A DNA stretch of 52,557 bases. Source: Pararhodobacter sp. SW119 (GTDB lineage: Bacteria > Pseudomonadota > Alphaproteobacteria > Rhodobacterales > Rhodobacteraceae). The position numbers and the translations under genes were made by a program. Below, one piece after another: positions 1 to 44,692 of the stretch. The notes below the pieces were generated by a model, which did no database searches, was not told the DNA's origin, and saw nothing but the letters and a program-made list of their open reading frames with translations. The stretch spans positions 1-52,557 of the forward strand of contig NZ_JADDJF010000024.1 of NCBI RefSeq assembly GCF_017811755.1, read 5' to 3'. Position 1 is the first letter of the stretch. Each line of letters begins with the position of its first letter.

Positions 1-225
1 CATCCGACGACTCCTCAGAACCGACCCGGATCAGGCCGCCGATCCCTGGCGAAACTTAACCTCCAAACTGCGAAAGAATCCAAGAGTCGTGTAGTATGAA
101 GAAAGTATTGCAATCACGGCTTTTTTCTTTTTTTGTCAAAGACCTGAACTCCGGTCCGCTAGCGGACCGCCTCGTCATCGCGCGGATTCTTGCCCCAGCA
201 CGACCGTTCCGACCTCGTATCCCGG
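1..225. other. Non-coding stretch beyond the 3' end of hslU
   Basis: No convincing gene is seen. The stretch lies beyond the hslU stop codon. It has an AT-rich centre (about 85-140) and holds one copy of the T-tract/palindrome element annotated separately at 117-169. No hairpin followed by a T-run in the hslU direction is visible, so the hslU terminator is not identified. A short plus-strand reading frame at 96-335 runs into hslU antisense and is low-complexity, so it is not called. Confidence 0.6.
117..169 (+). repeat. T-tract + TCA/CCTG core + palindrome element, copy 1
   Basis: Read on the plus strand it shows a T-rich tract (C followed by seven T, then G), TCA at 136-138, CCTG at 143-146, and the perfect 18-bp palindrome CGGTCCGCTAGCGGACCG at 152-169 centred on 160/161. 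Three other gaps (21.2, 30.6 and 44.6 kb) have the same blocks at the same spacing with a different palindrome sequence. In every copy the palindrome side faces the 3' end of a gene on the opposite strand, here hslU. Neither direction makes a standard intrinsic terminator, because the T-run comes before the stem rather than after it. Function unknown. Confidence 0.6.
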
Positions 226-20898: not shown

Positions 20899-21283
20899 AC
20901 GTAGCGGCCAAGCCCTGAGAGCCTTCACACTCCCGGCGCTCGACCTTCCGCCAGCCGTTCCTTGCGAACCCGCCCCCGATCGACCCGGCCGCTTCGGCAC
21001 TTGCTTCGGTCGCCTCGCGGGCCGGCCTTTCGCGCGGCAGACACGCCGCGCTAACTCCGGTTCGAATGGCGCCTGACGGTCGGCAGGTGCCTTTGGCCGC
21101 AGCATCGTCGCAGCCTCAGGAGCAGGTAAACAAAAGGTTGCGGTAACAACTATTTTCTTTTTTTATCAGTATCTTGAATGATTGTTCGCATGCGAACACA
21201 CCCGTTTTCACCCGGATTCGGCACGCTCCAAGGTCAGCGCAGCGGTTCGTTCCGCTGGAACGGGGCCGCAGTTTCGGACCGGT
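20899..21283. other. 385-bp gap between the PP2C and parE 3' ends
   Basis: No gene is supported. The left part (20899-21120) is GC-rich without good codon structure. The right part is AT-rich from about 21125 to 21185 and contains copy 2 of the T-tract/palindrome element. A GGTTCGAAT string near 21058 resembles a tRNA T-loop but has no matching stems. Confidence 0.6.
21134..21198 (+). repeat. T-tract + TCA/CTTG core + palindrome element, copy 2
   Basis: Plus-strand order: GGTTGC, a T tract (C then seven T, then A), TCA at 21166-21168, CTTG at 21173-21176, and the perfect 16-bp palindrome TGTTCGCATGCGAACA at 21183-21198. The T-tract and TCA line up base for base with copy 1 at 121-138, apart from an A/G change. 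The palindrome faces the parE 3' end (stop 86 bp away). It resembles parS only in its outer TGTT/AACA bases. Function unknown. Confidence 0.65.
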
Positions 21284-23236
21284 TCAAACGTCCAGTTCCT
21301 CGACGAAACGGGCGTTCTCGGTGATGTACTGGAAGCGCAGTTCCGGCCGTTTGCCCATCAGCCGCTCGACCAGATCACCGGTCTCGCCAGGCTCGTCCTC
21401 GTCGATGGACACCCGGATCAGCTTGCGGGTCGCCGGGTTCATCGTCGTGTCCTTCAGGTCCTTGGCATCCATCTCGCCGAGGCCCTTGAAGCGGCTCACG
21501 TCGATCTTGCCCTTGCCACCCAGCCCCTTCTCCAGCCAGGCCGCCTTCTCCGCCTCGTCCAGCGCATAGATCCGCTTCGCCCCTTGCGTCAGCCGGAACA
21601 GTGGCGGGCAAGCCAGGTAGAGGTGCCCGTGATCGATCAGCGGCCGCATCTGCGTGAAGAAGAACGTCATCAACAGCGCCGCGATATGCGCCCCGTCGAC
21701 ATCGGCATCGGTCATGATGATGATCTTCTCGTAGCGCAGATCATCCAGCCGGAACTTCGTGCCCAGCCCCACCCCCAGCGCCTGGCACAGATCGCTGATC
21801 TCGGCGTTTTGCCCCATCTTGCCCGAGGCCGCGCCGAGCACGTTCAGGATCTTGCCCCTCAGCGGCAACAGCGCCTGCGTCTTTCTTTCGCGCGCCATCT
21901 TCGCCGACCCGCCCGCCGAGTCCCCCTCGACGATGAACAGCTCCGTCCCCTCGCGCCCAGCGGCCGAGCAATCGACCAGCTTGCCGGGCAGGCGCAGCTT
22001 CTTCGTCGCGGTCTTGCGCTGGGTCTCCTTCTCGGCGCGGCGGCGCAGGCGTTCCTCGGACCGGAGCACCAGATAGTCGAGGATCGCGCCCGCCGATTTC
22101 GGATCCGACGCGAGCCAATTGTCGAAGTGATCGCGCACCGCCCCCTCGACCAGACGCGCGGCCTCGGCCGTGGCCAGCCGGTCCTTGGTCTGGCCCACGA
22201 ATTCTGGCTCGCGGATGAAGCACGACACCAGCGCGCAGCCGCCCGCCGCCATGTCCTCGCGAGTGATCTGCGCGGCCTTGCGGTTGCCGGCGCGTTCGCC
22301 ATGCGCGCGGATGCCCTTCAACACCGCCGCCCAGAAGCCTGCCTCGTGCGTGCCGCCTTCGGGCGTGGGGACGGTGTTGCAGTAGGACTGCACGAACCCG
22401 TCGCGCGCCGGCGTCCAGTTGATCGCCCATTCGACCTGGCCGGGTACGCCGAACTTCTCCTCAAAACTCACGCGGCCGGCAAAGGGCTTGTCGGCATAGG
22501 TCTGATCGCCGCCCAACTGCTCCTGCAGGTAATCCGCCAGCCCTCCGGGAAAGCGAAAGGTGGCCTCCATCGGTGTGTCGCCGTCCGGCAGCGCCGATTT
22601 CCAGCGGATCTCGACCCCGGAAAAAAGATAGGCCTTCGACCGCGCCATGCGAAACAGCCGCGCCGGCTTGAACCGGTGATGGCCGAAGATCTCCTCGTCG
22701 GCATGGAAGGTCACGGTCGTGCCGCGCCGGTTCGGCGCCGGGCCGACCTGCTGCACCGGCCCCTGCGGCTTGCCGCGCGAAAACTCCTGCACATAGAGCT
22801 GCCGGTTGCGCGCCACCTCGACGCGCAGGTGATCGCTCAGCGCGTTGACGACCGACACCCCCACGCCGTGCAACCCGCCCGAGGTTTGGTAGGCCTTACC
22901 CGAAAACTTGCCCCCCGAATGCAGTGTGCACAGGATCACCTCCAGCGCCGACTTGTCGGGAAATTTCGGATGCGGGTCGATGGGGATGCCCCGGCCGTTG
23001 TCGCGGATGGTCAGCGCATGATCGGCGTGCAATTCGATCTCGATGCGGCTAGCATGTCCCGCCACTGCCTCGTCCATCGCGTTGTCCAGGATCTCGGCCA
23101 CCAGATGGTGCAGCGCGCGTTCATCCGTGCCGCCGATATACATCCCCGGCCGCTTGCGCACCGGCTCCAGGCCTTCCAGGACCTCGATGGAATGGGCATC
23201 GTAGCTGTCGGTCGCGCCGGCAAGAAGGTCGGACAT
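21284..23236 (-). CDS. parE: DNA topoisomerase IV subunit B
   Basis: ATPase subunit of topoisomerase IV, which decatenates daughter chromosomes together with ParC. 650 aa. The GHKL ATPase motifs are EILDNAMDEA (about 48-57), DNGRGIP and QTSGGLHGVG; the transducer domain is followed by TOPRIM motifs EGDSAGGSAK and DADVDGAHI. The QTSGGLHGVG wording and overall length favour ParE over GyrB, which usually runs to about 800 aa. The gene stands alone, with a weak hairpin upstream separating it from the permease gene. Confidence 0.93.
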   Translation of the reverse strand: MSDLLAGATDSYDAHSIEVLEGLEPVRKRPGMYIGGTDERALHHLVAEILDNAMDEAVAGHASRIEIELHADHALTIRDNGRGIPIDPHPKFPDKSALEVILCTLHSGGKFSGKAYQTSGGLHGVGVSVVNALSDHLRVEVARNRQLYVQEFSRGKPQGPVQQVGPAPNRRGTTVTFHADEEIFGHHRFKPARLFRMARSKAYLFSGVEIRWKSALPDGDTPMEATFRFPGGLADYLQEQLGGDQTYADKPFAGRVSFEEKFGVPGQVEWAINWTPARDGFVQSYCNTVPTPEGGTHEAGFWAAVLKGIRAHGERAGNRKAAQITREDMAAGGCALVSCFIREPEFVGQTKDRLATAEAARLVEGAVRDHFDNWLASDPKSAGAILDYLVLRSEERLRRRAEKETQRKTATKKLRLPGKLVDCSAAGREGTELFIVEGDSAGGSAKMARERKTQALLPLRGKILNVLGAASGKMGQNAEISDLCQALGVGLGTKFRLDDLRYEKIIIMTDADVDGAHIAALLMTFFFTQMRPLIDHGHLYLACPPLFRLTQGAKRIYALDEAEKAAWLEKGLGGKGKIDVSRFKGLGEMDAKDLKDTTMNPATRKLIRVSIDEDEPGETGDLVERLMGKRPELRFQYITENARFVEELDV

Positions 23237-30550: not shown

Positions 30551-30828
30551 TCGGCGCCAGGGCGCGCAGGCCTACGATTCCAGGGGCGTGTGCACGCGTG
30601 CACATCGGTGCAAGACCCTGATAAGTAAGGCAAAGAGTTTTTCTATTAACCGGATTGAAACCCGCGCCTCATGGCGTCGCGCGCCGTTCTCGGTTCGGGC
30701 GGCGCGGGCTCGGGCCCCATCAAGGGACCCTCGCCCGCCGGCGGCCCGCGGCCGCCGATTGTGCCCTGCCGCGACGGACAGGACCACCCGGCAGGGCCAG
30801 ACATGGCGCAGGGCCCGGCGCGAAGGCT
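30551..30828. other. 278-bp gap between the DUF4169 and cmk 3' ends
   Basis: Convergent gap. The left half holds copy 3 of the T-tract/palindrome element (30589-30653). The right half is GC-rich with no supported gene. No intrinsic terminator for cmk was recognised. Confidence 0.6.
30589..30653 (-). repeat. T-tract + TCA/CTTG core + palindrome element, copy 3
   Basis: Read on the minus strand: CCGGTTAA (30653-30646), 21 bases including CTCTTT, TTATCA (30624-30619), CTTG (30614-30611), then the perfect 16-bp palindrome TGTGCACGCGTGCACA (30604-30589). The distance from TTATCA to the palindrome centre is the same 28 bases as in copies 1 and 2. The CCGGTTAA block 21 bases ahead is shared with copy 4. 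The palindrome faces the DUF4169 3' end, 39 bp away. Confidence 0.65.
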
Positions 30829-44530: not shown

Positions 44531-44551
44531 GCAAGGGGTTGAATCGCGCCG

Positions 44552-44617
44552 CTGCGCAAATTGCGCAGAGGCAGCAAGTCATTGAAACACCTAGAAAAGA
44601 GAAAAAATCTTAACCGG
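44552..44617 (-). repeat. T-tract + TCA/CTTG core + palindrome element, copy 4
   Basis: Minus-strand order: CCGGTTAA (44617-44610), 21 bases including a T-rich tract with CTCTTTT, GTTTCA (44588-44583), CTTG (44578-44575), then the palindrome CTGCGCAA-T-TTGCGCAG (44568-44552, arms of 8 with one central base). TCA, CTTG and the palindrome fall at the same offsets as in copies 1-3, with the centre shifted by half a base. It lies in the convergent gap between the hydrolase gene (stop 22 bp away) and fmt. Confidence 0.65.
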
Positions 44618-44692
44618 ATTTCAACCTGTGTAAACGGGCCAGACGCACCGCGCCGAAGCGTACCGGGCCCCGGTTGCCGGTCGGCGGCGGGC

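What the first reader, a model, noticed from the sequence alone, without database searches (positions are those of the whole stretch)
21134..21198. Recurrent intergenic element with a spacing-locked, sequence-variable palindrome (four copies)
Gaps at about 117-169 (+), 21134-21198 (+), 30589-30653 (-) and 44552-44617 (-) share one layout: T-rich tract, a hexamer ending TCA, four bases, C(T/C)TG, then a perfect palindrome. Counting from the first base of the TCA hexamer, the palindrome centre falls at 28/29 in three copies and at base 29 in the fourth. The arms differ completely (CGGTCCGCT, TGTTCGCA, TGTGCACG, CTGCGCAA), so pairing is kept while sequence is not. That is covariation expected of an RNA hairpin or cruciform, not of one protein operator. 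In every copy the palindrome faces the 3' end of an opposite-strand gene (hslU, parE, DUF4169, hydrolase), and the T-run precedes rather than follows the stem, so it is not a standard terminator. I do not know a described family with this design.
Basis: seen in the sequence. Interest (0 to 1): 0.75.

Follow-up and report, generated by a model that had tools for sequence, protein, structure and literature searches.

The report
IHF-site palindrome repeats between converging genes
The four look-alike gaps belong to a family of roughly 300 small DNA repeats that one bacterial lineage keeps mostly between genes running towards each other, each combining a likely site for the DNA-bending protein IHF with a near-perfect mirror-image sequence whose letters differ from copy to copy; this matters because it hints at a control element read by symmetry rather than by sequence.

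Summary
The four copies belong to an ~85-bp family: 113 copies in 1.61 Mb of this genome (about 317 extrapolated); abundant in 3 of 18 same-genus genomes. At dyad positions 2-7, 925 of 936 pairs match although letters vary; a scan that ignores the palindrome, trained on G014, gives 79 of 85 hits with six of six pairs (control 1 of 170). At orthologous gaps 13 of 42 pairs changed, all on both sides. Elements lie in 60 of 112 convergent gaps (80 bp or longer), 19 of 271 tandem, 1 of 164 divergent; 16 of 16 double elements have palindromes outward. Near-absent G-T pairs (2 of 936), pairing into the centre and no downstream U-run favour DNA-level symmetry over an ordinary RNA terminator. Best reading: a lineage-specific 3'-end element, RIB/BIME-1-like, forming an IHF-bent complex that insulates converging genes. 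Architecture is shown; IHF binding and function are inferred. Tandem orientation (11 to 9) and turnover (6 of 13 orthologous gaps empty) speak against a fixed polar terminator.

The parts
91..175 (+). element copy 1 (whole 85-nt unit)
   Evidence: R2 62.0 bits, (copy is in the model's alignment)
95..120 (+). copy 1 upstream box (type GCAATCACGG)
   Evidence: alignment A4
134..146 (+). copy 1 IHF-consensus site (2 mismatches to WATCARNNNNTTR, by eye), preceded by T-tract 121-133
   Evidence: sequence; family statistic
152..169 (+). copy 1 palindrome, 9-bp arms, faces hslU 3' end
21121..21205 (+). element copy 2 (whole unit; the finding given)
   Evidence: R2 75.2 bits, highest of the 150 scored, (copy is in the model's alignment)
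21125..21149 (+). copy 2 upstream box (two half-boxes 11 bp apart)
21164..21176 (+). copy 2 IHF-consensus site TATCAGTATCTTG (exact, by eye), T-tract 21151-21164
   Evidence: sequence; family statistic
21183..21198 (+). copy 2 palindrome, 8-bp arms, faces parE 3' end (gene 21284-23236, minus strand)
30582..30666 (-). element copy 3 (whole unit)
   Evidence: R2 70.6 bits, (copy is in the model's alignment)
30643..30662 (-). copy 3 CtrA-like box GGTTTCAATCCGGTTAATAG
30611..30623 (-). copy 3 IHF-consensus site TATCAGGGTCTTG (exact, by eye)
   Evidence: sequence
30589..30604 (-). copy 3 palindrome, 8-bp arms, faces the DUF4169 gene
44546..44630 (-). element copy 4 (whole unit)
   Evidence: R2 42.2 bits, (copy is not in the model's alignment)
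44609..44626 (-). copy 4 CtrA-like box GGTTGAAATCCGGTTAAG
44575..44587 (-). copy 4 IHF-consensus site TTTCAATGACTTG (1 mismatch, by eye)
   Evidence: sequence
44552..44568 (-). copy 4 odd-centred palindrome 8-1-8, faces the alpha/beta hydrolase gene

Best explanation
A lineage-specific dispersed 3'-end DNA element of about 85 bp. Shown: the order and spacing are CtrA-like direct-repeat box (about -66 to -47), T-rich tract (-40 to -28), IHF consensus (-27 to -15), then a 12-16 bp dyad centred at 0 with pattern G-Y-N-C-R-M / K-Y-G-N-R-C whose halves match almost perfectly while several positions are free. Many linker positions carry almost no information, yet linker length is kept within about 1-2 bp. 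Inferred: IHF binds and bends the DNA so that what sits on the box and on the dyad meets in one phase-locked nucleoprotein complex. Inferred: between converging genes the complex blocks or insulates the two transcription units (an IHF roadblock, with the dyad as stall or cruciform point and possibly as a 3' hairpin in the transcript), much as RIB/BIME-1 elements are thought to act in E. coli. Inferred: the family spread long ago in one clade of the genus and is now held by selection.
For: 113 copies in 1,609,789 bases, about 317 per genome by extrapolation. IHF consensus at a fixed offset with at most 1 mismatch in 123 of 170 copies versus 0.1% of shuffles (consensus and upstream A-tract seen in passages of PMC9820253). 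CtrA-like box: at most 3 of 11 mismatches to TTAAC-N5-GTTAAC in 102 of 170 versus 4 of 170 shuffled (motif seen in passages of PMC7232146). Dyad: 925 of 936 pairs complementary; with the palindrome left out of the search, 79 of 85 hits have 6/6 pairs versus 1 of 170 control places. Information is 0.00-0.12 bits at -46 to -41, -33 and -19 but 1.4-1.9 at -52, -24, -23, -17, -16, -15: unconstrained positions are randomised while motif and spacing stay, which suggests selection. Convergent gaps 60/112, tandem 19/271, divergent 1/164. Double elements 16/16 with palindromes outward. Two orthologous copies lie above the 99th percentile of random pairs and differ in the dyad only by both-sided changes.
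Against: No binding or transcript data; every protein is inferred from motifs. Tandem gaps show no polarity (11 versus 9), unexpected of a terminator for the palindrome-side gene. 52 of 112 convergent gaps of 80 bp or longer carry no element. Turnover: of 13 orthologous G014/G000 gaps, 7 share at least one element and 6 are empty in G000; at parE itself G008 and G014 carry an element in the opposite orientation, and G014 has none within 190 nt of hslU. Ends facing a palindrome do not differ clearly from other ends in canonical terminators, so replacement of terminators is not shown. Why a complex should demand matched halves without fixed sequence is unexplained.
Confidence: 0.42

Rival explanations
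1. The palindrome is an RNA hairpin: a 3'-end or terminator structure of the palindrome-side transcript; IHF site and box are secondary.
For: In 67 convergent cases the palindrome end lies a median 29 nt from the palindrome-side gene versus 101 nt from box to the box-side gene, and is the closer in 52; 16/16 outward pairs; both-sided changes.
Against: Wobble pairs 2 of 936; pairing at +-2 and mostly +-1, and odd centres of which 12 of 14 are CAA-N-TTG; consensus after the stem is NTYYGGCAAG, no U-run; RNA folds of the four window copies z -0.97, -1.43, +0.32, -3.71; 9 of 20 tandem copies point the palindrome at a 5' end.
Confidence: 0.27
2. A selfish REPIN/MITE-like repeat (inverted pair as the mobile unit, single units as remnants) tolerated in convergent gaps because promoters are absent there.
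For: Presence/absence at orthologous gaps, 6 of 13 empty in G000, e.g. about 16 bases in G000 against about 100 in G014 at L239 (gap lengths by eye); three carriers among 18 same-genus genomes; back-to-back pairs.
Against: No near-identical copies: maximum 0.81 over 54 nt among 4,950 G000 pairs; motif kept where linkers are randomised; no Y1 (RAYT-type) transposase found in G008 or G014 (estimated 82% and 92% complete); pair spacing varies 141-233 bp.
Confidence: 0.2
3. A recombination or integration site: box, IHF site and dyad resemble arm-type sites, H' site and core inverted repeat of an integrase att site (resemblance recalled, not tested).
For: Same order of parts, and a direct repeat 11 bp apart in the box.
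Against: No recombinase was searched for except PF01797; exact pattern of the type-A box plus IHF core has no match in viral contigs.
Confidence: 0.06
4. Chance or alignment artefact.
Against: A scan without the palindrome gives 85 hits above 14 against none in reversed sequence, 79 of them with perfect dyads.
Confidence: 0.01

Closest known systems
E. coli RIB/RIP elements (BIME-1: two inverted REPs with an IHF site between)
   Same: IHF site plus palindromes, at 3' ends of transcription units, dispersed copies, inverted pairs (BIME-1/IHF statement seen in a passage of PMC2817692; Boccard and Prentki 1993 seen only as a title in its reference list, the paper is not held)
   Different: Each unit here carries its own IHF site and a CtrA-like box; REP palindromes are conserved in sequence (recalled), this dyad is not; no RAYT-type transposase found in two of three carriers
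REP/REPIN with RAYT
   Same: short palindrome beside a constant part, back-to-back pairs
   Different: no Y1_Tnp match in G008 and G014; GTAG/CGTC tags (known from titles and abstracts) not seen in the consensus
Caulobacter CIR (CerM) and Neisseria Correia/NEMIS repeats
   Same: about 110-155 bp repeats; the Neisseria 155-bp form carries an IHF site (passages of PMC2229807)
   Different: CIR repeats are marked by GANTC sites and the Neisseria ones are MITEs with terminal repeats; a sequence-free dyad is not mentioned in the passages seen
Unnamed intergenic repeat of same-genus G017 (CCCCCGAGGATATTT...GTTAAC-N5-GTTAAC)
   Same: convergent gaps, GTTAAC boxes in the middle, half-units facing outward
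   Different: no R2 match in G017; an IHF core or free dyad was not searched for there

Membership tests
RIB/BIME-1 (REP-IHF-REP) | IHF consensus inside the element | tested here: met
   123 of 170 with at most 1 mismatch at fixed offset; binding itself untested
RIB/BIME-1 (REP-IHF-REP) | extragenic, at 3' ends | tested here: met
   67 of 88 flanked elements in convergent gaps, 20 tandem, 1 divergent
RIB/BIME-1 (REP-IHF-REP) | palindromes of conserved sequence (REP; recalled) | tested here: not met
   free positions 5, 6, 3, 2 with matched partners
RIB/BIME-1 (REP-IHF-REP) | two inverted palindromes around one IHF site | tested here: not met
   one dyad per IHF site; 14 of 113 G000 copies sit in close pairs
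REP/REPIN | associated RAYT (Y1) transposase | tested here: not met
   PF01797 in G000 and G006 only, of 18; none in G008 or G014, both incomplete
Intrinsic (Rho-independent) terminator | G+C-rich stem followed by U-run | tested here: not met
   T-tract precedes the stem in element orientation; in the other direction the consensus NTYYGGCAAG follows
Structured RNA | compensatory changes, usually with wobble intermediates | tested here: inconclusive
   both-sided changes yes; wobble 2 of 936
Rfam families | match at gathering score | tested here: not met
   0 matches in the window (only gathering thresholds, only the window)
CtrA binding site | TTAAC-N5-GTTAAC | tested here: inconclusive
   first half degenerate; at most 3 of 11 mismatches in 102 of 170 versus 4 of 170 shuffled
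IHF binding site in vivo | occupancy | not testable with these tools
   needs ChIP or gel shift

The most novel reading that the evidence does not exclude
A chromosomal element recognised by duplex-level symmetry rather than sequence: a dyad whose halves must match each other while the letters are free, phase-locked by an IHF bend to a CtrA-like box, used some 300 times as an insulator between converging genes. The outer (8, 6, 5) and inner (3, 2, 1) parts of the half-site vary almost independently (of nine outer-inner pairs only 5 with 2 shows association), so a set of paralogous dimers is an unlikely reason for the matching.
Probability: 0.3. Interest if true: 0.85.

Novelty: new variant of a known kind. 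Interest (0 to 1): 0.62.

Why it matters
How bacteria with few U-run terminators separate converging transcription units is an open question; here 60 of 112 sampled convergent gaps of 80 bp or longer carry one standard device. The variable but matched dyad offers some hundreds of natural compensatory variants in one genome, so DNA-level and RNA-level models of palindrome function can be tested directly. If IHF and a CtrA-like regulator do bind, a global regulator would touch hundreds of gene ends.

Tried and rejected
Plain pattern TTTTT-N5-20-CYTG: 332 matches against 239 for the reversed control, too loose to be useful. Sigma-70 promoter reading of CTTG: dropped by eye. RAYT-driven REP: not supported. 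Palindrome as a pre-existing host hairpin beside an inserted unit: an early impression from 27 copies that palindrome type follows box type weakened with 155 (GCTAGC is 3 of 5 in box type B); not decided. KOPS-like strand polarity: only glanced at (mixed strands on C1), no statistic. Paralogous-dimer operators: argued against by near-independence of outer and inner modules. A gene caller with 64-76% coverage was discarded for the dynamic-programming one (86-90%); searches used a first caller on C1 and the window only, and mis-called at least the gene beside copy 4. An idea, written in the notebook, that the arms of the G017 element are strictly paired was dropped: gap 182881 has unlike arms. 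Prior description: searches listed no paper that by title or abstract describes this element in Rhodobacteraceae (open-licence PMC only).

Literature: PMC7232146, PMC2817692, PMC2229807, PMC9820253 and PMC12306157 were seen by passages and listing abstracts; PMC3733652, PMC1525189, PMC2267715, PMC8040213 and the rest only in search listings.

Rows dropped: one search used 155 of 171 copies, 156, 100 G000 by 56 G014, 170; the 14 odd-centred copies were left out of pair statistics and listed apart. L029 (partial), L008, L030 and window copy 4 were left out of A4. One search examined 49 G014 gaps: 13 had an ortholog in the G000 sample, the rest were short-flanked, unmatched or not adjacent. In one search the eighth pair (one odd centre) was not counted. 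G014 regions were chosen by their strong elements, not at random.

Full report
Observation. The four copies are present as described. A covariance model from three of them (R1) gave 103 own-genome matches at E up to 10. The refined model R2 matched all 150 candidates that the tool scored in the 4.51-Mb genome; 1,323 had been nominated, so 150 is a floor.

Copy number. I read 1,609,789 bases of the genome (window; contig C1 to base 400,000; C105, C138, C116, C149, C127, C160; 60 kb of C2) and scanned them without that cap: 113 elements, about 317 by extrapolation. The weakest accepted copies score about 19 bits; fragments at 14-18.5 bits were left out. Copies near the edge are less certain.

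Distribution. Eight genomes outside the genus have 1-3 matches at E 0.004-0.1, which I take as chance. Filters were the stricter ones, so weak copies may be missed. An exact pattern scan of genome contigs gave 15 stretches, all in two Rhodobacteraceae MAGs, CSSed165cm_500 (11) and CSSed165cm_288 (4) (near records may be left out). Contig lengths suggest that G014 is CSSed165cm_500; inference. A slightly relaxed form of the pattern has no match in viral contigs.

Anatomy, counted from the dyad centre over 155 even-centred copies. Box AAAG-GTTTCA-N4-GGTTAA at about -68 to -47, in two registers one base apart; T-rich tract, 47% T and 69% A+T at -40 to -28; WATCARNNNNTTR at -27 to -15; a short A/G-rich stretch; the dyad; a C-rich flank. 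IHF: 42 of 170 copies fit exactly and 81 with one mismatch; shuffled letters reach one mismatch or fewer in 0.1%. The consensus and upstream A-tract are stated in PMC9820253 (passages). Box: against the D. shibae CtrA motif TTAAC-N5-GTTAAC (PMC7232146, passages), 21 of 170 copies have two mismatches or fewer and none of 170 shuffled controls. The first half-site is usually TTTCA, so 'CtrA-like' is a resemblance.

The dyad. Positions 4 (C) and 7 (G) are nearly invariant; 6 is Y, 3 is R, 2 is A or C, 5 is any base. At positions 2-7, 96-100% of pairs are complementary where independent halves predict 35-62% at the variable positions. Of 936 pairs 2 are wobbles and 9 other mismatches. The tool's count on A4 (27 copies) gives 97.9% paired cells against 77.9% in shuffles and at most 56.6% in slid versions. 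Because R1 and R2 reward pairing, I repeated the search without the palindrome: a weight matrix from 58 G014 copies, positions -70 to -15 only, gives 85 hits above 14 in the G000 sample and none in the reversed sequence, 82 of them already in the R2 set. 79 of the 85 have six of six pairs within two bases of the expected centre, against 1 of 170 control places. The G014 training copies were themselves found with R2, but their palindromes are not in the matrix.

Orthologous sites. Of 49 G014 gaps, 13 have an orthologous gap in the G000 sample. Seven share at least one element, each in the same orientation (L197, L200, L224, L227, L236, L240, L242 at 3111); six are empty in G000 (L196, L229, L231, L233, L239, L242 at 5098; L229 aligns poorly). 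At L239 the gap is about 16 bases in G000 and about 100 in G014 (by eye). At the site of the finding, parE, G008 and G014 have an element in the opposite orientation, 13 other same-genus genomes show none by eye; at hslU, G008 has one in the same orientation and G014 none within 190 nt. Among seven compared even-centred pairs, 29 of 42 dyad pairs are unchanged, 13 changed on both sides, none on one side. Only L200 (0.80) and L240/41821 (0.76) exceed the 99th percentile of random pairs in framework identity, so for the others independent gain is possible.

Location. With the better gene caller (home-made, 86-90% coding) elements lie in 60 of 112 convergent gaps of 80 bp or more, 19 of 271 tandem and 1 of 164 divergent; none in shorter gaps. 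This used 91 elements (1.217 Mb), 88 with both flanks. Gap length and presence are not independent, since an element lengthens its gap. In convergent cases the palindrome is nearer its gene in 52 of 67. Where two elements lie within 250 bp, all 16 pairs (7 in G000, 9 in G014) have boxes inward and palindromes outward. Against polarity, 9 of 20 tandem copies have the palindrome towards a 5' end, among them one between a thiolase and a reductase-like gene (names by eye).

Function. Canonical terminators: 4 of 66 convergent ends facing a palindrome, 8 of 52 facing a box, 9 of 106 without element; tandem ends 0 of 11, 1 of 8 and 16 of 252; shuffled 12 of 249. A second count gives G000 21 of 224 convergent ends (shuffled 7) and 17 of 271 tandem (shuffled 5); G017, without the element, 17 of 91 tandem (shuffled 1) and 2 of 34 convergent (shuffled 2). 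So such terminators exist but are few, and I cannot show that elements replace them. Linker positions have lost almost all information while motifs and spacing remain, which is hard to explain without selection on a phase-locked complex. From this I infer an IHF-bent complex that insulates converging genes, at 0.42.

DNA or RNA. For RNA: position after stop codons in most cases, outward pairs, covariation. Against: near-absence of wobble, pairing into the centre, standard tetraloops in 1 of 157, no U-run, and ordinary folding energy in three of four window copies. A mutational account (one arm templating correction of the other) would also match arms, though not readily at positions 1-2. IHF is reported to bind four-way junctions (PMC9820253, listing abstract and passages), which would suit a cruciform; a lead only.

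Novelty. No Rfam match in the window. The nearest described kind is RIB/BIME-1; the element meets it in IHF site and location and fails it in conserved palindrome sequence and layout. Literature searches covered open-licence PMC only.

Noticed in passing
L247-L266 (G017, first 400 kb), e.g. gaps after 73290, 88892, 163798, 296036, 322559: A different symmetric convergent-gap repeat: CCCCCGAGGATATTTNNN plus one of a few tags (GAGCAAAGA, GACAGATGAT, GACAGAAAATG) facing a central GTTAAC-type box; by pattern 7 in convergent and 3 in tandem gaps.
   Followed up: partly
G002, G004, G005 and others of the genus: Pattern TATTTNNNNNNAAGATG: 17 matches in G002, 32 in G004, 10 in G005, 7 in G012, against 1, 0, 0 in G000, G008, G014; but several same-genus genomes without the present element also have 0-1 (G006, G009, G010, G015, G016, G017), so replacement of one repeat by another is only a thought.
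   Followed up: partly
G000 sample, gene ends facing gaps of 80 bp or more: Canonical U-run terminators are few: 21 of 224 convergent and 17 of 271 tandem ends (shuffled 7 and 5).
   Followed up: no
G000 C35:63425-63682 and C143:10-93: Y1 (IS200/RAYT-like) transposase matches in this genome and not in the other two carriers; no link to the element shown.
   Followed up: no
G000 C138 142982, C1 28324, C116 179439; L197 2232, L198 1216: Copies with long arms (13-15 bp) in which the palindrome extends into the A/G-rich linker, so that the flank mirrors the element.
   Followed up: no
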